Assembly (NCBI GenBank): GCA_018240465.1
Contig: JAFEFS010000059.1
Span: forward strand, 25,514-89,513
DNA length: 64,000 bases
Direction: 5' to 3'
From: Pseudomonadota bacterium
GTDB lineage: Bacteria; Pseudomonadota; Gammaproteobacteria; Xanthomonadales; Rhodanobacteraceae
Shown here piece by piece: positions 10,064-23,940 of the stretch (position 1 is its first letter; every line of letters begins with the position of its first letter). Both the position numbers and the translations under genes were made by a program. The notes under the pieces are model-generated. The model had not been told where the DNA came from. It did no database searches and was given only the letters and a program-made list of their open reading frames with translations.

Positions 10064-10621
10064 TTACATCGCCATCAATTCGTCTTCCTTGGCCTTGACC
10101 ACGCCGTCGACGTCCTTGACGAACTTGTCGGTGAGCTTTTGCATGTCGTCTTCGGCGCGGCGTTCCTCGTCTTCGGTGATCTTCTTGTCCTTGAGCAGTT
10201 CCTTGACCTGATGCAGCGCGTCGCGGCGCACGTTGCGGATCGCGATCTTCGCGTTCTCGCCTTCGTGGGAGACGTGCTTGGACAGTTCCTTGCGCCGCTC
10301 CTGGGTGAGCGCCGGGATGTTGATGCGGATCACCGTGCCGGCCGTGGTCGGGGTGAAGCCCAGGTTCGCTGCGATGATGGCCTTCTCGACCGCGGGCACC
10401 ATCGGTTTTTCCCATGGCGTGATCGTCAGTGAACGCGCGTCGGCGACGGCGATGTTGGCGACCTGGCTGATCGGCACGTCGGAGCCGTAGTAGTTGACCT
10501 TGAGGTGATCGACCAGGGCGGTGCTGGCGCGGCCGGTGCGCAGGCGCGTGAGTTCATGCTTGAGCGCGTCGACGCTCTTGGTCATGCGCGTTTGCGCGTC
10601 CGATTTGATGTTGTTGAGCAT
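10064..10621 (-). CDS. frr: Ribosome recycling factor
   Basis: Releases ribosomes from mRNA after termination together with EF-G. The product is 185 aa, exactly the usual length, from an ATG with a strong GGAGG 5 nt upstream. The sequence is typical throughout: MLNNIKSDAQTRMTKSV at the start, HLKVNYYGSDVPI in domain II, and a long charged coiled-coil C-terminal part ending ELMAM. A longer in-frame reading reaches back to 11077 but is non-coding pseudogene DNA. In relatives frr directly follows pyrH; here a 12.6-kb island separates them. Confidence 0.96.
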   Translation of the reverse strand: MLNNIKSDAQTRMTKSVDALKHELTRLRTGRASTALVDHLKVNYYGSDVPISQVANIAVADARSLTITPWEKPMVPAVEKAIIAANLGFTPTTAGTVIRINIPALTQERRKELSKHVSHEGENAKIAIRNVRRDALHQVKELLKDKKITEDEERRAEDDMQKLTDKFVKDVDGVVKAKEDELMAM

Positions 10622-10653
10622 GACGACCTCCGCGTCTCTGGTGAAGATTGCGG

Positions 10654-10659
10654 AGTATA
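10654..10659 (-). promoter_or_regulatory. Candidate extended -10 promoter of frr
   Basis: On the minus strand TGC precedes TATACT, an extended -10 box, with transcription predicted to begin about 25 nt before the frr ATG. No convincing -35 hexamer is visible, as expected for extended -10 promoters. It lies just beyond the last recognisable residue of the kinase remnant, so it may have allowed frr to be expressed independently of pyrH. Inferred from sequence only. Confidence 0.45.
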
Positions 10660-10670
10660 GCAGCGGTGTC

Positions 10671-11174
10671 GCAGCCGACGCGGGCGGCCGAGGCCGTCGG
10701 CAAGTGCGCGGGCGCCGGGGTAGCGGCGCGGCGGATCGCGATGCAGGCATTCCAGCGCGATCGCCTCGAGGTCGTGCGGGTGGCGGACGCAAGCGCCCAC
10801 AGCGGTGCGGGAACGGTCCCGCGCACGAGTTGCAGGTTTGCCTGTGACATATCGGCGAGACGCGGCGGACGACTGGCAAGGGGAGCGTAGAGGATCGTGC
10901 CCGGCCAGCCCCAAGACGTCCGCTGCGGGTACGAGGTTTAACGGGTCCACCGGGACCTGCGCTGATGCCGTGCAGCTGGGGATGCAGGAGATCTCCCCGG
11001 CGTTTTCGTCGGCGCCGATCGCGTCGCCGGGGTCGAGCTTTGGGGGCGGCCGAAGGCGGTCGCGTGGTCAACACCATTCTCGCCGATCGACACGTTGCCG
11101 GGCTTGAGTCCCGGATACAGCACGTCGAACCGGCGCACGCGCTCGATCGCCTCGGCGACGGTTCGCGTGTTCAC
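10671..11174 (-). pseudogene. Decayed Ser/Thr protein kinase remnant (second copy)
   Basis: Three reading frames must be joined to read this as a kinase. Frame 1 starts at the ATG at 11174, overlapping the sigma stop, and reads RTVAEAIERVRRFDVLYPGL then KPGNVSIGENGV, matching RTVAEAVDYAHRLGVLHLDL then KPANVLLDEDGV of the intact kinase (16460-20833). Another frame gives ENAGEISCIPSCTA and PAADVLGLAG, like the activation and APE regions. A further shift gives ILYAPLASRPPR, then DLEAIALECLHRDPPRRYPG and ARALADGLGRP, matching the kinase C-lobe. About 177 N-terminal residues (including the ATP-binding loop) and everything after the kinase domain are missing, so it cannot be an active kinase. Confidence 0.85.
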
Positions 11175-11899
11175 GGCGGCTGGCTCTTTCGCGTCAGGAC
11201 CGTGTGCAAGATTGCCTGTTCCGCCCGCAGTTGCTCGTGCGATGTGACCGTGTCGACGAGTTCCTCGCCCGCAAGCTCGCGCAAGCGCTTGAGCGCGACG
11301 AGCAACGCAAGCGGGCGCGAGGACAGCGCCTGCGCCGCGGCGTCGAGTTCGCCGGGTGCCGGTTCGCAGGCGAGGAACGGCTCGAGCGCATCGTACATGG
11401 CGAGATGCCCGCCGCGCTGTACTTCCGCGCGCAACCCGCGCAACGCCCGGGCGACGACTTCCAGGGCGAAACCGCGTTCGTAAGCCTGCGCGGGTGTCGT
11501 CGTTTCGCTATCGGCGAAGTCGCGCAGATAGCGGGCTTCCAGCTCTGCCGGGACGGCGGCGTCGTCGTTGTGGGCGTCGATGGGTTCGCGCCAGTCGCGA
11601 CCGAGAAAGGCCTCCAGGCGTTCGAGCAGATAGAGACGGAACTGGCCACGTTCGAGGGCCGCGCGATGGTCGCGGAAATCACGCGTCAGGCTGCCGATGA
11701 AGCTGTGCGCGATGTCTTCCGCGATCGCCGGGGCATGGCCGCTGCGGCGGGTATAGGCGTAGACCGGATACCAGTAGCGTTGCACGAGCTCGGCCAGCGC
11801 GACCCGCGCCTCACCCGGCGCGGTCGCGGCGGTCCGTGTGAAGACCGACCAGCGTGTGGTCGCGAAACGATCGATGCGATGGCTGGGCGAAGACATCAT
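11171..11899 (-). CDS. ECF-like RNA polymerase sigma factor, 'sigma A' type, second copy
   Basis: A 242-aa sigma-70-like protein of the kinase-associated ECF type common in Acidobacteria and Planctomycetes. The N-terminal signature is RFATTRWSVFTR. Region 2 contains YWYPVYAYTRRSGHAPAIAE and QFRLYLLERLEAFLG; the region 4 helix-turn-helix includes LSSRPLALLVALKRLRELAG. A roughly 30-residue charged C-terminal tail follows. It is paralogous to the protein at 20833-21567. Its stop overlaps the start of the kinase remnant exactly as in the intact module. Because its kinase is broken, it is either orphaned or served by the other kinase. Confidence 0.75.
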   Translation of the reverse strand: MMSSPSHRIDRFATTRWSVFTRTAATAPGEARVALAELVQRYWYPVYAYTRRSGHAPAIAEDIAHSFIGSLTRDFRDHRAALERGQFRLYLLERLEAFLGRDWREPIDAHNDDAAVPAELEARYLRDFADSETTTPAQAYERGFALEVVARALRGLRAEVQRGGHLAMYDALEPFLACEPAPGELDAAAQALSSRPLALLVALKRLRELAGEELVDTVTSHEQLRAEQAILHTVLTRKSQPP

Positions 11900-11990
11900 G
11901 GCCGCTCGATTCGACAGGGCTCAACGCATCTTCACGATTCAGCGTCGTCGATTACATCGCGGCCACCGGCGACGGTTCACGGGCAGTTTT

Positions 11991-12698
11991 TCATTGCATC
12001 GCCACACCGAGGGCTTTGCGCAACTCGAGCATTTCCGATTCGAGATCCTCGCCTCCGTTCGTCGTCTGCATGAGCTCCTCACGCACGAGTTCGCGCAATC
12101 GATGGCGCAGCCGGTGTACCGCCACGGCCAGGGTGTTGCGCCGCACGTTGAGGGTGGCGGCGGCGCGCGCGTAGTCGTCTTCGTCCGGACGCTCGATGAG
12201 GAATTCCTGCAGTCGATCGAACCACTCGAGCCTGCCTCCCTGTTCCGCTTCGTTGCGCAGCCTGGCGAGGGCGGCGTCGAGCACGGCAACTGCCCAACTG
12301 CGTTCGAATGCCGCTTCCGGCGTCGCTTCGGAAGACGCGGCCCGGATATTGTCCCCGCTCTCGGTCAGCAACGGCTCGAAATGAACGCCGCCGCCGCGCT
12401 TGAGCGTCTGATCTCCGACGTCGGCATTGATCAGGAAACGTTTCAGCGCGGTGAGCAGGAACGCGCGGAAACGCCCGCGGGCCGGGTCCGCGTGGACGTG
12501 CCAGGCCAGTTCGAGAAAGCGCGTGAAGAAAGCCTGCGCGAGATCCTCGGCCGTATCGGGTGCATAACCGCGGCTGCGGATGTAGGCGAGCACCGGCGGG
12601 CGATAGGTGCGGCACAAGGATTCCAGGGCCGCGCGCTGCTCAGTGCCGCTGCGGGCACGCAGCACCACGCTCCAGCGAGTCGTGTCGAATTGGGCCAT
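11991..12698 (-). CDS. ECF-like RNA polymerase sigma factor, 'sigma B' type, second copy
   Basis: A 235-aa ECF-type sigma factor. The start MAQFDTTRWSVVL (ATG at 12698) was chosen by alignment with its paralogue at 21721-22440. Region 2 contains TYRPPVLAYIRSRGYAPDTA then EDLAQAFFTRFLE and RGRFRAFLLTALKRFL; region 4 contains DYARAAATLNVRRNTLAVAV then HRLRHRLRELV. No anti-sigma gene is adjacent. In this family control is thought to be by a linked Ser/Thr kinase. A 13-nt motif shared with the other copy lies 36 nt upstream. It is followed after 91 nt by the sigma A gene. Confidence 0.8.
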   Translation of the reverse strand: MAQFDTTRWSVVLRARSGTEQRAALESLCRTYRPPVLAYIRSRGYAPDTAEDLAQAFFTRFLELAWHVHADPARGRFRAFLLTALKRFLINADVGDQTLKRGGGVHFEPLLTESGDNIRAASSEATPEAAFERSWAVAVLDAALARLRNEAEQGGRLEWFDRLQEFLIERPDEDDYARAAATLNVRRNTLAVAVHRLRHRLRELVREELMQTTNGGEDLESEMLELRKALGVAMQ

Positions 12699-12734
12699 CC
12701 GCCGATTTCCGGTACAAATCCCAGTGCATACGCG

Positions 12735-12747
12735 AGTCTGCCACAAA
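12735..12747 (-). promoter_or_regulatory. Conserved 13-nt element upstream of sigma B, second copy
   Basis: Minus-strand TTTGTGGCAGACT is identical to the element at 22471-22483 in front of the paralogous sigma B gene. It begins 36 nt before the start codon, against 30 nt in the other copy. Flanking DNA is not obviously conserved, so this may be a promoter -35/operator element shared by both modules. Sequence identity is seen; the role is inferred. Confidence 0.45.
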
Positions 12748-12853
12748 TTCCCGGGATCTGTCGGCGGCTTTCGTCAGAGAAGGCCGCACCGGCGCAGCGG
12801 TATGCCGCTCGCGGACGCGTGAGATGTGTCGGGCACGGGCTGCTTGGTCCGCG

Positions 12854-12888
12854 CGTCGGCCGCCGTGTCGCCGCGCGGCGGACCGACG
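12854..12888 (-). other. GC-rich hairpin between small secreted gene and sigma B, second copy
   Basis: Arms CGTCGGCCGCCG and CGGCGGACCGACG can pair imperfectly around a short loop, directly after the small secreted protein gene. There is no T-tract, so it is not a textbook terminator. The intact module has a hairpin in the same position (22553-22575), which hints at an attenuator or an mRNA 3' stabiliser separating the small gene from the sigma genes. Confidence 0.4.
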
Positions 12889-12900
12889 CCGCGCCCTGCG

Positions 12901-13254
12901 TCAATGTCCGGCAAACGCGGTCAGGTTGCGCGTATCGTACTCGCGGGTGAAATTGTCGTAGCGCGATCTCACGAACGTATAGGATGTCCGATATTCCGGA
13001 TACGCGGTCGCCGCGCCGAACAGCATGCCGATCTCGCGGCTGCTGAAGTTGCGGCGGATCTCGGCATGAAATGCGGCGCATTGCTGCATGGAGTTCGGCG
13101 GCGTGCAATCGGTAGTGAGCTTCGATGGTGCGGCCGCGGCGCGGGCGGGCGCGGAACTCACGGTAACCGGTTTCAGCGGCGCCTGAGGCTCGGCCGCATT
13201 CGCGGCAATGGCGAACAGCAAACTGGCGATGACGATGTGCTGGTTGGGTTTCAC
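12901..13254 (-). CDS. Small secreted two-cysteine protein, second copy
   Basis: A 117-aa protein with GTG start and GGAGA 6 nt upstream. It has a signal peptide (HIVIASLLFAIAANAAE), a Pro/Ala/Ser-rich linker, then a conserved domain starting DCTPPNSMQQCAAFHAEIRR with two cysteines 11 residues apart, followed by REIGMLFGAATAYPEYRTSY. It is paralogous to the product of 22607-22963, with near identity in that domain and a divergent N-terminal half. I recognise no named family. The periplasmic or extracellular location and first place in each sigma module suggest a signal or output protein, but this is inference. Confidence 0.8.
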   Translation of the reverse strand: MKPNQHIVIASLLFAIAANAAEPQAPLKPVTVSSAPARAAAAPSKLTTDCTPPNSMQQCAAFHAEIRRNFSSREIGMLFGAATAYPEYRTSYTFVRSRYDNFTREYDTRNLTAFAGH

Positions 13255-13586
13255 GACAATCTCCGTATGCGGGGGTGGCGGGAAAGCGGATGCGATCTGT
13301 CAGATGCACCCACGCCCCGAAAGCTGGCGGCCGACTCGGGAATTGCGCGACGGCCGCCGTCACCGATCTACTACGGCAAGGCGTGCCAGACATTACACGC
13401 CCGCGCACGCGAATCGCGCATGCATGCGCGCGATGTCACGGGTTGGTTGCGGCAAAGTATATAAATTCAAATTGTGTCAGGCGGCCATTTCCGGGCGCGC
13501 CGGTCGGTCGCCGCGCACGCCGGGCGTGAGATCGCCGCCGCGGCCCTTGTCGCCGACGTGCGGCAACGCCCGGTGGCCGCGCGTGT
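13255..13586. other. 332-bp intergenic region between the two modules
   Basis: No credible gene. The only notable content is an AT-rich patch at 13455-13480 that stands out in this GC-rich DNA. On the minus strand it contains TATACT (13456-13461) downstream of CTGACA (13475-13480), but the spacing of 13 nt is too short for a standard promoter. It could be the upstream control region of the small secreted gene at 12901-13254, about 200 nt away. No clear terminator for the TonB receptor gene is visible here. Confidence 0.4.
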
Positions 13587-16459
13587 TCAGAACCTTTGCT
13601 GGTAGCTGGCGTAGAAAAACCGGCCAGGTGCGTCGTAGTCGGGAAAGAACGAGTTGAACAGAGCCGAACGCGCAACCGGCGGCGAGCGGCCGAACGCGTT
13701 GCGCGCGCCGAGCGTGAAACGTCCATGCCACGGCGCTTCCCAACTGCCTTCCAGGTCCGTGAAGGTCACGCTCGGCACGTGGTTTTGCGGCGCGGCGGCA
13801 CCGCCGATCACGTGATCGGGAGCGGTGCACAACATGCGCAGCGATGGGTCGTGGAGCCGGGCGGCGAGATCGGTGACGCCACTGCAGTCCTCGTCGATAT
13901 CCGAGAAATAGCGCGTGGTGATCGACGCGCCGAAAGCGCCGTTTTCCCAGACCAGCTGCAGTTGCGAACGTACACGCCAGATCACGCCGAACAGACCGCC
14001 GCTGTCGGCACTCGGGGCGTGCGTTCCGGCGATGTTGCCGGTTGCGATCGAGCCGTCGGCCAGCAACGTACCCGGGCCGGGTTTGCCGATCTCGCCGAAG
14101 TAGTCGACGTAGTTCAGGGTCCAGTACACGCCGATGCGGCCGACCGGCATGGCGCGCCGATAGCGGAGCGCAAAGTCGTAGCCTTCGGTCTCGATGCCGC
14201 CGGCGAGATTCTGCGGCAGGTCGATCACCTGCGCGAGCGTGCCGTCGGCGGCGCGCGTGATCTGCGCGCACGCGACGTCGCGGTTGCGCCGATAGCAGTC
14301 GTCGACAACCGCCTGCAAGCCGGTGTCGCCGATCGCGTTGTACAGACGAAGGTCGTACCAGTCCAGGTTCGCGTCGAGCCCTTCGATCCAGCCCGGAGTG
14401 AACACGAGGCCGACGCCGCGCGAGCGCGAGGTCTCCGGCTGCAACCGCGGGTTTCCACGCGAGATCGGGCGCGTGAGTTCCTGCGTGGAGTCGACGTTCG
14501 CCGGCACACCGAGTGCGGCACAGCGCGCCGACACCGCCGGCGTCGGCGGCGGCTCGTTGCGCGGGTCACAGGGATCATCGGGTCCGGCGTTGCCGATGCC
14601 GGTTGCCGCGCCCTGGAACAACTCGAAGATCGCCGGTGCGCGGAAGCCCTGCGCGTAGTTGGCGCGCACGAGCACATCGTCGACGATTTCCCAGCGCAGG
14701 CCGAACTGCGAATTCGTCGTGCCGCCGAAATTGGAGTAGCGGGAATGGCGCGTGCCGACGGTCAGGTCGAGTTTGCGTGCGAACGGCTTGTCGGCAAGCA
14801 GGCCCGCATCGAGTTCCAGGTAGGCTTCGGTGATCGAATAGGCGCCGCTGGTTGAATCGGCGGTGCCGCCGTTGCCATTTTCATTGCCGCTCGCGCGCAG
14901 CGGGTCCTCGATGGCCGCGCCGCTTTCGCGGCGATGATCGACGCCGGCGGCGAAGGCGAGCGCACCGCCGGGCAGCACCAGCAGTCCGGGCGAGCTCACG
15001 TGCGCGTCGAGCACGTGCGAGCCATCGCGTTGGCGGTTGGTCTCTGGCGCATCGACGTAGGCGAGCATCGCCGGCGTGATCGAGCCGGGTGGGCCGAACA
15101 AGTCCAGCGACACGCAGCCGTCGATCGGAGCGTCGGGTGCGCCGCAGCGTGGCAGGCCGCCGGCATCGCGAAACGACGGCCCGAGGGCCAGCGCAAGCTT
15201 GCGGTTGTCTGCATATGGGCCGGTGTGTTCGCGCTCGGCCACGCGCGTGACGGTCGCGTCGACGGCCCAGGAGAAGTTGCGATGGAACAGGTCGAAAGCG
15301 CCGTCGAGCCCGGCGTGCAAGCGGCGTGTGTCTGCCGTTTGCTCGAAGATGCGTGGACCGCCTTCGACGAGGCGCCGGTTCGCGGCGATGATCGGTTCGC
15401 CGAACGGGTTGTATGCGTTGCCCGCCGCGATCGGGATTGCTGCCGGGTCGCTCGGAAAGCGCGCGTCGAGGCGGATCAACGGCGGCGCCATCTGCTGCGT
15501 CGACCCGCGCCGGGTGAACAGTGCGTCGGCGGCGAAAGCGAGCCGGGGCGAGAATTCGTACCGCGCATGGGCGAACACGGCGCGACGCGTTTGCGGCGTT
15601 TGCAGATAGTTCAGCGGGGCGTAGTTGTACGTGTCGGCGAGCGGGTTGAAGTTGCGGAAATCCGCAGGCGAGGTGCCGCCGCGACCGTCGATCAACCGCA
15701 GATATGGCGGCCGCGGATGCGAGGCGAGCAGAAACCGCGTGAACGGTGTGGTGGGCGAGCCGGTCGCGTCGAGCGGCAGGCCGAAGTTGGGTACTGCGGA
15801 GATCACACGATTGCCGGCAAAAATCGCATCGTCGCGGCTCCACTCCGCGCCGCCCGATGCGCTCCAGTGTTCTCCCTTGCGGCCAAAGCCCAGATCGACT
15901 TTGCGGCGCCTGCCGTCATCGTAGTCGGTCTGCGCATGGTAGAGGTCGAGTTGGCCGCCGGAATGGTTCTGCCGCGTGACGATGTTGATCACGCCGGCAA
16001 TGGCATCGGAGCCGTAGATCGCGGATGCGGAATCGAGCAGTACTTCGACGCGCTCGACCACTCCGACCGGGATTGCGCTCAGATCCACCGCGCCACCGAT
16101 GTCGGAGACGAAGCGGTTGCCGTCGAGCAGCACCAGGGTACGATTGAAGCCGAGGCTGCGCAGGTTGACGAGCTGCTCGCCGCTGCCGCCATTGTTGATG
16201 TTCCGATTCAGCGTCGAACCGTTGGCGGAGAGGCCTTGCACGACGTCGGAGATGCTGGTCAGGCCGCTGCGCTCGATCTGCGCGCGATCAAGGATCAGCA
16301 TCGGATGCTGGGTCTGCAGATCGATGGCGCGGATGTGCGAGCCGACGACTTCGATCGTGCCCAGTACTTGCGCATCCGGCGTTTCCTGCGCCCGTGCGCA
16401 AGTGAACGCCAGCGCCAGGCAAAGCGCGCACGACCGGCGGCAGCGGACCGAGGTGTGCT

Positions 16460-16463
<4 letters not shown>
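13587..16463 (-). CDS. TonB-dependent outer-membrane receptor
   Basis: A 958-aa TonB-dependent transporter. It has a signal peptide ending near residue 25, then GTIEVVGSHIR and the plug domain (SISDVVQGLSANGSTLNRN, RVEVLLDSASAIYGSDAIAG, VINIVTRQN). A 22-strand barrel with long extracellular loops follows, with receptor motifs such as YAQGFRAPAIFELFQG and NPRLQPETS, ending in the aromatic residue of FYASYQQRF. It has no N-terminal signalling extension like FecA, so any link to the sigma factors must run through the kinase. The ATG overlaps the kinase stop (ATGA), so the two are translationally coupled. Ligand unknown. Confidence 0.9.
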
Positions 16464-20832
<4,369 letters not shown>

Positions 20833-20833
<1 letters not shown>

Positions 20834-21567
20834 CAGCCTTGCGCTCCGCCGAGTTCGATGAGCAGGACGTCCTGCTCGGAGGCGAGATCGGCCTCCGATG
20901 CGACCGTATCGGCGAGTTCGTCGGCGACGAGTTCGCGGAAACGCTGACGCAGGCGCTTTAGCGCCAGCGTCAGCACCAGCGGCCGGCTGCCGAGTTTCGC
21001 GGCGATGGCCTCGTATTCGCCACTGACCGGCTCGCGCGCGAGCAGGGGCTCGAGCCGTTCGTACATGTCGAGGTGGCCGGTCTGTCGCGCCTCGCTGCGC
21101 AGCCGCCGCAGGGTGCGGTCGAGAATCTGCAAGGCAAACGCACGCTGGAAACTCTGCTCGGGCGAAGGCGCGTCGACCGGCTCACGCCGATAACGGTCCT
21201 CCAGTCCGTCCGGCGTTTCGCGATCGTTGGCCGGCGACATCGCTGCGGGGCGATCCTTGGCGGCGAGGAAGCTGCGCAGCCGGGCGAGCAAGTAGACTCG
21301 ATACGGACCCTGCGCCGTCGACCCGCCATCCGGCACGGGCGCAGTTTCGCCGGTGAGCTGACTCAGAAATCCTTGGGTCAGCGCGGCGGCGGCGGCGGAC
21401 GTGTGTCCGCAGCGGCGCAGATAGACGTACACCGGATAGCGGAAGCGATTCGACAATTCACCCAGCGCATTGCGTGCCCCGTCCGCCTCCGCTGTGCCGA
21501 CGTGCGTCGCGATCGACCAGCGTGTCGCCGCGAATCGCTCCTGCGTATCGATGGAAATGGAGGTCAT
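20833..21567 (-). CDS. ECF-like RNA polymerase sigma factor, 'sigma A' type, intact module
   Basis: A 244-aa sigma-70-like protein. The start at 21567 (MTSISIDTQERFAATRWS) has GGGGAG just upstream; an ATG 12 codons earlier has no good ribosome site. It has the RFAATRWS signature, a region 2-like FRYPVYVYLRRCGHTSAAA and a region 4-like LGSRPLVLTLALKRLRQRFR, plus a charged tail. It is more divergent from classical ECFs than sigma B: region 2.3/2.4 lacks the strong EDLAQ block, reading AAALTQGF instead. It may be a regulator or a degenerate sigma. Its stop overlaps the kinase start, so the pair is co-translated. Confidence 0.75.
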
Positions 21568-21604
21568 TTCGCTCCCCGGAATGGTTTTCGCGACATTTTG
21601 CATA

Positions 21605-21672
21605 CGGCGATTGCAGGCGGCGATTGCAGGCGGTGATTGCAGGCGGTGATTGCAACCGGCGATTGCATCCGG
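21605..21672. repeat. Five tandem 13-bp repeats upstream of sigma A
   Basis: Consensus CGGYGATTGCAGG occurs five times head to tail at 21605, 21618, 21631, 21644 and 21657, with only the last two positions drifting in copies 4 and 5, followed by CGG. It lies between the sigma B stop and the sigma A start, so it sits in the 5' part of the sigma A ribosome-binding region or in a promoter. Iteron-like spacing of 13 bp would place sites on successive, not identical, helix faces. No equivalent is visible in the second module. Confidence 0.9.
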
Positions 21673-21720
21673 AACGCGTTCGACCGCTCGCGCCGCGCTT
21701 GCGCGATCACGGCGGCGGCG

Positions 21721-22440
21721 CTATCCGGGCGCGAGCAGGTGCGGCAAGGTTTTGTGCATGTGGTCGATTTCTTGGTCGAATGAGGCGGCGTCCGCGGCGG
21801 TCTCCGCCAATTCTTCGCGCACGCACGCCTGCAAACGTGCACGCAGGCGGTGCACCGCGACCGCGAGCGTGCCGCGCTTCATCTGTAGAGTTTCGGCCAG
21901 GCGCGCATAGTCGTCTTCGCTGGGACGTTCGATCAGGAATTCGCTGAGCGCGTCGAACAGGTCTGTTTTTCCGGCCTTGGCGATCTCGGCCTGCAGACGA
22001 TGCAGCGCGGCGCGCAGAACGGTTTCAGCCCAGCTGCGCTCGAAAACCTGTTCCGGCGTGGTCGGCTGCCGGGCGTCGTCGAGCTGGTCGTGCGTGTCGA
22101 TCGCATCGAGCGGCGCATGCTGGACGGCACCGCCACGCTTGAGCGCACGTTCGCGATCGACCTCGTCACCGAGAAAATGCTTGAGCGCGGTCAGCAGGAG
22201 GGAGCGGAAGCGGCCGCGCGCCGGATCGGCTTGCGCATGAACGGCGCGTTCGATGAAGCTGACGAAGAAGCCTTGGGCGAGATCCTCGGCGACATCAGGT
22301 GCGTGACCGCGCGCGCGGATGTAGGCGAGCACGGGAGGGCGATAGGTGCGGCAAAGCGATTCCAGGGCTGCGCGCGCGTCGGCCTGTTCACCGCGGCTGC
22401 GCAGCACCACGCTCCAATGCGTCGTTTCGAACCGGCTCAT
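21721..22440 (-). CDS. ECF-like RNA polymerase sigma factor, 'sigma B' type, intact module
   Basis: A 239-aa ECF-type sigma factor. The start MSRFETTHWSVVL is at 22440, with GGGGAC upstream; a longer frame exists but lacks conservation with the paralogue. Region 2 has TYRPPVLAYIRARGHAPDVA then EDLAQGFFVSFIE and RGRFRSLLLTALKHFLGD; region 4 has RLAETLQMKRGTLAVAVHRL then RARLQACVREEL. It resembles kinase-linked ECF groups. No anti-sigma factor is adjacent, fitting phosphorylation control as shown for EcfP/PknT in Vibrio and EcfK/PknS in Xanthomonas. It is followed by sigma A after 153 bp. Confidence 0.82.
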   Translation of the reverse strand: MSRFETTHWSVVLRSRGEQADARAALESLCRTYRPPVLAYIRARGHAPDVAEDLAQGFFVSFIERAVHAQADPARGRFRSLLLTALKHFLGDEVDRERALKRGGAVQHAPLDAIDTHDQLDDARQPTTPEQVFERSWAETVLRAALHRLQAEIAKAGKTDLFDALSEFLIERPSEDDYARLAETLQMKRGTLAVAVHRLRARLQACVREELAETAADAASFDQEIDHMHKTLPHLLAPG

Positions 22441-22470
22441 CGGCACGTCCCCGGATTTGACGCCGGTCAC

Positions 22471-22483
22471 AGTCTGCCACAAA
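22471..22483 (-). promoter_or_regulatory. Conserved 13-nt element upstream of sigma B, intact module
   Basis: Minus-strand TTTGTGGCAGACT, identical to 12735-12747, begins 30 nt before the sigma B start. Conservation between two otherwise diverged intergenic regions suggests a functional site such as a promoter or operator. A GGCGTCAAAT stretch follows it here but is not kept in the other copy. Confidence 0.45.
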
Positions 22484-22552
22484 CGCATGCCGACGCGGCA
22501 AGCCGCGCGCGCGCGGTGTGCATGCATCCTGGCCCAGCGATCGGAACAAAGC

Positions 22553-22575
22553 CGGCCCCGCTCCAGGCGGGGCCG
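22553..22575 (-). other. Strong GC hairpin between small secreted gene and sigma B, intact module
   Basis: Arms CGGCCCCG and CGGGGCCG flank a 7-nt loop immediately downstream of the small secreted gene. The following minus-strand sequence is only mildly T-rich, so it may act as a partial terminator or attenuator giving more of the small protein than of the sigma factors. A hairpin occupies the same place in the other module. Confidence 0.5.
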
Positions 22576-22606
22576 ATTCCAGGCAGGCGGAATACTGGCT
22601 GCAGGA

Positions 22607-22963
22607 TCACTTGGTCGATGCGAATGCGGTCAGATGCTGCTCGTCGTAGGCGCGTGCGAAAGCATCGTAGCGGCGGACGACGTTGTCGTACGACGAACGG
22701 TACTCGGGGTATGCGGTCGCGGCGCCAAACAACATGCCGATTTCGCGGCCGTTGAAGTTGCGGCGGATTTCGTTGTGAAAGGCGGCGCACTCGGCCATGC
22801 TGTTGGGCGGCGTGCAGTCGAGCGTGTGGCCGCTGCGCGGGGCCTTTGCGGACGAGCGTTCCGAATGCACGACGACCGACGAGAGGGACGATTGCGGGTC
22901 CGCCTGGGCGACGCTGGCTGCGGCGACAAGGGCGATTGCGATGCTGAGTAGACGGGTTTTCAC
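22607..22963 (-). CDS. Small secreted two-cysteine protein, intact module
   Basis: A 118-aa protein starting at GTG 22963, with GAGGAG 8 nt upstream; the ATG just before it is out of frame and hits TGA at once. It has a signal peptide (LLSIAIALVAAASVAQA), a Ser-rich linker, then DCTPPNSMAECAAFHNEIRR and REIGMLFGAATAYPEYRSSY, with two cysteines probably forming a disulfide in the periplasm. The domain is almost the same as in 12901-13254. No known family is recognised. It is the first gene of the sigma/kinase/receptor module. Confidence 0.82.
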   Translation of the reverse strand: MKTRLLSIAIALVAAASVAQADPQSSLSSVVVHSERSSAKAPRSGHTLDCTPPNSMAECAAFHNEIRRNFNGREIGMLFGAATAYPEYRSSYDNVVRRYDAFARAYDEQHLTAFASTK

Positions 22964-23211
22964 GGCATGCTCCTCGAAATGATGGATGGGCGGAATTTTC
23001 CTGAATCGAGGATGCGGCCCGTCCGTTTGACCGCACCCTCTCCCTGACACACGGCCTTTGCATCGTGCAGTGGCTGAAGTTTTTGCCTTCGACCTAGAGT
23101 GCGGAAACCGGTGCGGACGATTACAGCGCCGGGCGGCTGGCGGGAAAAACACGCGCGCAGGCAGACGCGCACGCGTTGCGCGCGCGCGGGGGAAACATCG
23201 GTGATCGGGAG

Positions 23212-23940
23212 CTAGGGCTTGCCGGTGTCGACCAGTGTGCCGACCGCTTCGCCGCGCACGATGCGCATCAGATCACCTTCGCGGCTCATGTCGTAGATGC
23301 GCAGTGGCAGCTTGTTGTCGCGGCAAAGCGCGATCGCGGCGGTGTCCATCACCGCGAGCTTGCGTTCGATCACCTGGTCGTAGCTCAGGCGCTCGTAGCG
23401 TGTCGCGCTCGCGTCCTTCTTCGGATCGGCCGTGTACACGCCGTCGACCTTGGTCGCCTTGAGCACGAGGTCGGCACCGATCTCGATCGCGCGCAGCGCG
23501 GCGGCCGAGTCGGTGGTGAAGAACGGATTGCCGGTGCCGGCGGCGAAGATCGCGATGCGGCCTTTTTCGAGATGGCGGATCGCGCGGCGACGGATGAAAT
23601 CCTCGCAGACTTCGTTGATCTTGATCGCGCTCATCACGCGCGCTTCGCCGCCGGATTTCTCGACCGCATCCTGCATCGCGAGCGCGTTGATGACGGTGGC
23701 GAGCATGCCCATGTGGTCGCCAGTGACGCGATCCATGCCGGCCGCGGCGAGGCCTTCACCGCGGAAGATGTTGCCGCCGCCGATCACCATGCCGACCTGC
23801 ACGCCGGCGCGCTCCACTTCGATCGTTTCGCGCGCGAGGCGGTAGATCACCTTCGGGTCGATGCCGTAGTCGGCCTCGCCCATCAACGCTTCGCCGGAGA
23901 GTTTGAGGAGGATGCGTTTGTACTTCATCTCGGCGGGCAT
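23212..23940 (-). CDS. pyrH: UMP kinase
   Basis: Phosphorylates UMP to UDP using ATP in pyrimidine nucleotide synthesis; the bacterial enzyme is hexameric and unrelated to eukaryotic UMP/CMP kinase. It has 242 aa with [14 protein letters not shown] at the N-terminus, [29 protein letters not shown] and [17 protein letters not shown], all family hallmarks. It is downstream of tsf behind a terminator and has its own -10 box. Normally frr follows directly; here the sigma/kinase island follows. Confidence 0.96.

What the first reader, a model, noticed from the sequence alone, without database searches (positions are those of the whole stretch)
10622..23211. Accessory sigma/kinase/TonB-receptor island splitting the conserved pyrH-frr pair
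pyrH and frr are adjacent in most proteobacteria, and the genes on both sides keep the usual order. Here about 12.6 kb of signalling genes, all on the minus strand and mostly linked by 4-nt overlaps, sit exactly between them: two ECF-type sigma factors, a transmembrane Ser/Thr kinase with a propeller sensor, and a TonB-dependent receptor translated right after the kinase. ECF sigma factors controlled by Ser/Thr kinases are known (Vibrio EcfP/PknT, Xanthomonas EcfK/PknS, Planctomycetes), but a translationally coupled outer-membrane receptor plus two sigma factors plus a small secreted protein looks unusual. Hypothesis: the receptor or its ligand is sensed by the kinase's periplasmic propeller, which phosphorylates the sigma factors, which switch on their own operon.
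Basis: partly seen in the sequence, partly recalled or inferred. Interest (0 to 1): 0.85.

Follow-up and report, generated by a model that had tools for sequence, protein, structure and literature searches.

The report
Kinase-linked sigma and pseudo-sigma cassette
In a bacterium of the Rudaea group, a sigma factor, a sigma look-alike that has lost polymerase-gripping residues its sigma relatives keep, and a membrane kinase are encoded side by side with an outer-membrane receptor; the same trio recurs in many relatives and likely switches on outer-membrane and secreted proteins, with the look-alike predicted to carry the kinase's signal to the sigma factor.

Summary
The island is real (12.6 kb between pyrH and frr), but it does not hold two sigma factors. 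It holds one complete cassette (small exported protein, sigma S1, sigma-like S2, membrane kinase, TonB receptor) and one broken copy (exported protein, S1, S2, decayed kinase). S2 is the discovery: the acidic-acidic-Gln set of region 2.2 is kept in 57 of 59 S1 but 0 of 46 S2, and a helix residue Asn/Gly in 59 of 59 against 0 of 46; yet S2 evolves under constraint and sits between S1 and a long-tailed kinase in many Xanthomonadales. A bipartite promoter (TGTAATC, 16 bases, GAAT) precedes S2, the exported protein and alternative outer-membrane outputs; its four best window matches are all in the island. Best reading: S1 reads this promoter, kinase and S2 control S1, receptor and exported proteins are outputs. 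Arrangement and motif are shown from sequence; phosphorylation and S2's role are inferred. The pyrH-frr slot is occupied in 12 of 15 congeners and in two genomes whose pyrH groups with another family, so it is a recurrent slot, not a one-off insertion.

The parts
23212..23940 (-). pyrH (UMP kinase), upstream flank
   Evidence: TIGR02075 326.5 bits
23099..23125 (-). promoter motif before the first small exported protein
   Evidence: PWM 18.7, second best of the whole window
22607..22963 (-). SPA, small exported protein (118 aa, GTG start)
   Evidence: no Pfam, NCBIfam or PHROGs match
21721..22440 (-). S1-A, sigma factor with intact region 2.2 (AEDLAQGFF)
   Evidence: start chosen by conservation
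21602..21628 (-). promoter motif before S2-A (TGCAATC variant), end of a run of TGCAATC units
   Evidence: PWM 18.6; sequence
20833..21567 (-). S2-A, sigma-like protein lacking the sigma contact residues (longer start at 21603 possible)
   Evidence: AlphaFold2 pLDDT 87.5
16460..20833 (-). membrane Ser/Thr kinase, 1457 aa; kinase domain residues 73-322, one hydrophobic segment after it, predicted propeller tail 385-1457
   Evidence: PF00069 169.7 bits
13587..16463 (-). TonB-dependent receptor, 958 aa, plug plus barrel, no N-terminal signalling domain found; 4-nt overlap with kinase
   Evidence: PF07715 and PF00593 only
13371..13397 (-). promoter motif before the second small exported protein
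   Evidence: PWM 13.0
12901..13254 (-). SPB, second small exported protein (117 aa)
   Evidence: no Pfam, NCBIfam or PHROGs match
11991..12698 (-). S1-B, sigma factor (56% identical to S1-A)
   Evidence: PF04542 26.1 bits
11930..11956 (-). promoter motif before S2-B
   Evidence: PWM 29.2, best of the window, but one of the 29 sites the matrix was built from
11171..11899 (-). S2-B, sigma-like protein; 4-residue gap in the last helix relative to S2-A
10684..11192 (-). decayed kinase-domain remnant (HLDLKPAN reads YPGLKPGN, DFG reads AFG)
10654..10659 (-). TATACT element before frr, also present at the three empty sites
10064..10621 (-). frr (ribosome recycling factor), downstream flank
   Evidence: TIGR00496 224.2 bits

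Best explanation
The island is a complete copy and a broken copy of a conserved cassette in which a sigma factor (S1), a sigma look-alike that lacks contact residues its sigma relatives keep (S2) and a membrane kinase are encoded together, and S2 is predicted to be the switch by which the kinase controls S1. Steps: the kinase's tail (predicted beta-propellers and a terminal beta-sandwich, inferred to lie outside the inner membrane) would detect an envelope signal; the kinase would then phosphorylate S2 and/or S1; S1 would be freed to guide RNA polymerase to promoters of the form TGTAATC-N16-GAAT. Such motifs stand before S2 (and so the kinase and the coupled receptor), before the small exported proteins, before the alternative outer-membrane outputs of other cassettes, and before further exported proteins elsewhere in the genus. 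I commit to S2 as a kinase-controlled holder (anti-sigma by mimicry) of S1, mainly because S2 and kinase are inside S1's likely regulon, as anti-sigma genes usually are (recalled). Shown from sequence: gene trio, lost residues, constraint, motif, decay of the second kinase. Inferred: that the motif is a promoter and S1 reads it, the direction of the kinase effect, S1-S2 contact, the ligand.
Confidence: 0.55

Rival explanations
1. S2 is a co-activator or phospho-carrier: the kinase phosphorylates S2 and phospho-S2 helps S1 bind RNA polymerase or promoter, rather than releasing it.
For: S2 is predicted to keep the sigma fold and overlaps the kinase gene by 1 nt in the window; half of S2 (23 of 46) have Ser/Thr at one position inside region 2.2.
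Against: No acceptor position conserved in all S2 within region 2.2; 21 S1-kinase loci do without S2.
Confidence: 0.25
2. S2 is a genuine but divergent sigma factor that recognises another promoter and is activated by phosphorylation like EcfP.
For: Loss of the acidic motif is the hallmark of phosphorylation-activated ECF43 (PMC8999054, PMC13147305, passages read).
Against: The EcfP/EcfK acceptor position is Ser/Thr in 1 of 46 S2; the Gln is kept in 3 of 46 and is Arg in 26; the helix position is Leu/Met/Ile/Val in 45 of 46; no sigma Pfam match in 42.
Confidence: 0.12
3. The receptor is the input: ligand-loaded receptor is sensed by the kinase's periplasmic tail.
For: Kinase and receptor genes overlap by 4 nt; receptor present in 14 of 28 readable cassettes; tail and receptor similarity correlate (Spearman 0.49 over 78 pairs).
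Against: No STN signalling domain found; the receptor is exchanged for an unrelated exported protein plus barrel in 13 of 28; tails diverge more (median 31.6% identity) than receptors (43.9%).
Confidence: 0.2
4. The island is a decaying remnant with little function in this genome.
For: Second kinase is dead, S2-B carries a 4-residue gap and pN/pS 0.36 against 0.10 for S1-B; three congeners have an empty slot.
Against: The first copy is intact, with the VALK, HLD and DFG motifs in the kinase, and S1-A has pN/pS 0.23-0.24 against two congeners. S2-A itself was not tested for constraint, having no close partner.
Confidence: 0.08

Closest known systems
EcfP/PknT (Vibrio parahaemolyticus) and EcfK/PknS (Xanthomonas citri), group ECF43
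   Same: ECF-type sigma factor next to a Ser/Thr kinase, no anti-sigma gene (passages in PMC8999054 and PMC13147305)
   Different: S1 keeps the acidic motif; a second, sigma-like protein sits between sigma and kinase; outer-membrane output genes behind the kinase
STK-associated ECF groups ECF59/61/62/217
   Same: ECF beside a kinase, with an acidic motif in groups other than ECF43 (PMC8999054 passage); S1-kinase loci found here also in records named Verrucomicrobia, Kiritimatiellales and Rhodopirellula
   Different: S1-type scores win at eight of nine such loci and one protein of L176 is a tie (169/170 bits), so no clear S2 there; group membership of S1 not testable here
FecI-FecR-FecA cell-surface signalling (recalled)
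   Same: sigma factor gene and TonB-dependent receptor in one locus
   Different: no FecR-type match, receptor without STN match, kinase instead
EcfG-NepR-PhyR partner switch of Alphaproteobacteria
   Same: a sigma look-alike under phosphorylation control; all parts in the regulon (PMC8103513 passages)
   Different: S2 has no receiver-domain match, no NepR match seen, Ser/Thr kinase instead of histidine kinase

Membership tests
ECF43 (EcfP/EcfK type) | Ser/Thr kinase gene adjacent to the ECF gene | tested here: met
   kinase directly after S2 in 40 of 46
ECF43 (EcfP/EcfK type) | acidic region 2.2 motif replaced, with Thr at the acceptor position | tested here: not met
   S1 keeps acidic-acidic-Gln in 57 of 59; acceptor position Ser/Thr in 1 of 46 S2 (position mapped by me from the motifs given in PMC8999054 and PMC13147305)
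ECF59/61/62/217 | sequence membership of the published group models | not testable with these tools
   group models not held; only passages of PMC8999054 and PMC8103513 read
sigma-70 family, S1 | sigma-70 region 2 / ECF model match | tested here: met
   S1-B PF04542 26.1 bits over cut-off 24. S1-A is under both cut-offs (PF04542 19.9 of 24; TIGR02937 36.6 of 42.9, E 3.3e-9) but 56% identical to S1-B
sigma-70 family, S2 as working sigma factor | region 2.2 contact residues and conserved residue of the last (-35) helix | tested here: not met
   0 of 46 for both (positions assigned by me from S1 and recalled ECF anatomy); 0 of 42 sigma Pfam matches; S2-A only NF009166 at E 0.00058, far under its cut-off
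FecA-type transducer | N-terminal STN signalling domain on the receptor | tested here: not met
   only plug and barrel found at E 0.01
FecI-FecR | FecR-type anti-sigma gene in the locus | tested here: not met
   no such match in Pfam or NCBIfam among the island genes (two of the ten ORFs were spurious frames)
PhyR-NepR-EcfG partner switch | sigma-like domain fused to a receiver domain | tested here: not met
   no receiver match in any of 42 S2
Kinase-regulated ECF system | phosphorylation of the sigma factor by the neighbouring kinase | not testable with these tools
   needs biochemistry

The most novel reading that the evidence does not exclude
S2 is a new kind of regulator: a duplicated sigma factor that gave up polymerase and promoter contacts to become a sigma-mimicking switch under a Hanks-type kinase, placed inside an autoregulated circuit that drives exchangeable outer-membrane and secreted outputs from a recurrent chromosomal slot between pyrH and frr.
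Probability: 0.45. Interest if true: 0.85.

Novelty: new variant of a known kind. Interest (0 to 1): 0.72.

Why it matters
PMC8999054 (passage read) leaves open how Ser/Thr kinases control ECF sigma factors that keep the acidic motif. A dedicated sigma look-alike between sigma and kinase, with a readable promoter motif and a predicted regulon of envelope and secreted proteins, makes that question testable in E. coli and in cultured carriers. It would also show that a sigma factor can be turned into its own regulator by duplication and loss of contacts.
Full report
What is there. The window belongs to a 3.67-Mb genome in 100 contigs. Names returned for relatives of its proteins include Rudaea sp. 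and Rudaea cellulosilytica, the latter on a contig of the same length as contig 1 of same-genus genome G007, so I place it in or near Rudaea; the genome itself was not named. Between pyrH and frr lie, in transcription order: SPA, S1-A, S2-A, kinase, TonB receptor, SPB, S1-B, S2-B, kinase remnant.

Two kinds of sigma-like protein. S1 proteins match ECF models, S1-A below the curated cut-offs. S2 proteins do not: 0 of 42 match a sigma Pfam model at E 0.01. In an alignment of 59 S1 (of 73 found; the rest are from other phyla, very distant or broken) and 46 S2, region 2.2 carries acidic-acidic-Gln in 57 of 59 S1 and 0 of 46 S2; a conserved Asn/Gly in the last helix is there in 59 of 59 S1 and 0 of 46 S2, where 45 of 46 have Leu, Met, Ile or Val. 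I assigned these positions to region 2.2 and the -35 helix from the papers' motif and recalled ECF anatomy. S2 has invariants of its own (Glu 100% and Arg 97% in an LExRY stretch; Lys 93% where S1 has His 97%). Five S2 pairs give pN/pS 0.20 to 0.43, so S2 is kept by selection. Its predicted structure is confident (pLDDT 87.5) and its best solved matches are ECF sigma factors at middling Z (AlgU 6.7, rmsd 10.8, 161 aligned).

A conserved trio. Across the loci collected from the genus, the order and named genome contigs, S1 directly precedes S2 in 42 of 46, one of them only a fragment, and a kinase directly follows in 40 of 46. The kinase tail is 1074-1157 aa in 28 of 29 complete cassette kinases; the window's tail is predicted as beta-propellers, a few helices and a terminal beta-sandwich (pLDDT 85.4), matching WD40-type propellers (Foldseek E down to 2e-25, but low whole-model TM scores). 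After the kinase comes a receptor in 14 or the CGE/OMP pair in 13 of 28 readable cassettes, and nothing of the kind in one (L131). None of 21 S1-kinase loci without S2 has a receptor, CGE or OMP in the stretch read; one, L049, has another exported protein next to the kinase. At nine loci from other phyla or unclassified records S1-type scores win at eight, and one of two sigma-like proteins of L176 is a tie.

Promoter motif. Regions before SP genes of distant genomes share one block. Starting only from TGT(A/C)A(T/C) before S2 and CGE genes, 29 sites yield an unseeded second element: GAAT-like, 16 bases after TGTAATC, with A in 27 of 29 at one position, and a G+C-rich patterned spacer. Scored against shuffles, sites above the best shuffle stand before S2 (31 of 45, L176 included), SP (14 of 15), CGE (11 of 15) and OMP (3 of 18), hardly before S1 (3 of 72) and not before kinases (0 of 73) or receptors (0 of 16). 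In the 64-kb window the four best matches on both strands are the four island sites, 29.2, 18.7, 18.6 and 13.0, the fifth scoring 9.1; only the S2-B site had been used for the matrix. In the genus the strict pattern occurs 28 times in ten genomes with S2 and once in six without, reversed control 0; outside the genus 32 times in 44 genomes. By my count from that list 17 of the 28 lie outside cassettes. I read 14 of these 17: 10 precede an exported protein starting within about 130 bases by a simple signal-peptide rule, 4 do not, against 29 of 148 background genes. One target, an exported 362-aa protein, has the site in both this genome and G010. Two genomes with S1 but no S2 still carry the SP site, so S1 is the likelier reader.

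The slot. Of 15 congeners, three have pyrH and frr adjacent (G003, G013, G014) and twelve carry at least one cassette gene beside pyrH or frr, from an S1 with or without SP (broken in G001) to 24 kb with two trios (G011); in four the slot is split over contigs (G004, G005, G008, G009) and in two frr was not found (G010, G015). In the other 44 genomes of family and order pyrH and frr lie within 300 bases in 36, about 1.2 kb apart in one (G028), and are unresolved, on different contigs or far apart in seven (counted by me). Two further genomes, G266 and a MAG labelled SZAS CTRL-102, hold pyrH-S1-S2-kinase-receptor-frr; their pyrH groups with the f2 family (100/99) while their S2 groups with two Rudaea-genus S2 and an f2 cassette that lies elsewhere (100/99). 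The slot was therefore probably filled more than once, or refilled by exchange. The TATACT element before frr is present in the window, in G007 and at the three empty sites, so frr would keep a promoter.

History of this copy. S2-A groups with a G011 cassette that lies elsewhere, S2-B with the slot residents of G010 and, less firmly, G012. G010 still has an open kinase start after its S2-B, cut by the contig end; here that kinase is a remnant with catalytic motifs lost. Tail sequences fall into at least two types: L061, L125 and L134 share 44-63% with the window, the other nine complete receptor-type cassettes and L167 27-34%, which suggests sensor exchange.

Mechanism. The order S1 | motif-S2-kinase-output, with S1 usually outside the motif's reach and S2 plus kinase inside, resembles autoregulated sigma/anti-sigma units (recalled; the EcfG system is so described in PMC8103513). 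I therefore favour S2 as a kinase-controlled holder of S1 (0.55 for the whole model). Whether the kinase marks S2, S1 or both, and the signal, are open. PMC8999054 (passages read) states that STK-linked ECF groups other than ECF43 keep the acidic motif and may work differently; S2 would be one answer for this lineage.

Known and new. STK-controlled ECF factors are known (EcfP, EcfK; passages of PMC8999054, PMC13147305 and PMC8103513 read). I found no description of the trio or of the slot in the listings of searches of an open-access library. Hence: new variant of a known kind, with a pseudo-sigma that could prove categorically new.

Noticed in passing
window 21602-21672 (-); L172 upstream of its S2: Between S1-A and S2-A about five tandem TGCAATC(A/G)CCGCC-like units; L172 has repeated TGTAATC units at the same place. 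Repeated -35-like elements, purpose unknown.
   Followed up: partly
L059 4471-13094; L156 12681: Some cassettes carry a second kinase with a different tail in tandem.
   Followed up: no
L128 and L175: Same slot filled in genomes whose pyrH belongs to another family although their S2 groups with Rudaea-genus S2.
   Followed up: partly
G000:C64:24955 and G000:C96:1225 (L221, L222): Motif before two exported proteins elsewhere in the window's genome; the second also in G010.
   Followed up: partly
L223 (G000:C98:10456): Motif-like site before a small protein with repeated GGTHVMDSGGHD units, about 3 kb from another kinase gene.
   Followed up: no
G000, other contigs: Ten further kinase genes over the Pfam cut-off in this genome; no S1 or S2 match in the stretches read around them.
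   Followed up: partly
L082 (G001): S1 between pyrH and frr broken by stops: decay of the slot.
   Followed up: no
L131 (G298): S2 and kinase with only a fragment of S1 and no envelope gene behind the kinase, a metK-like gene nearby.
   Followed up: no
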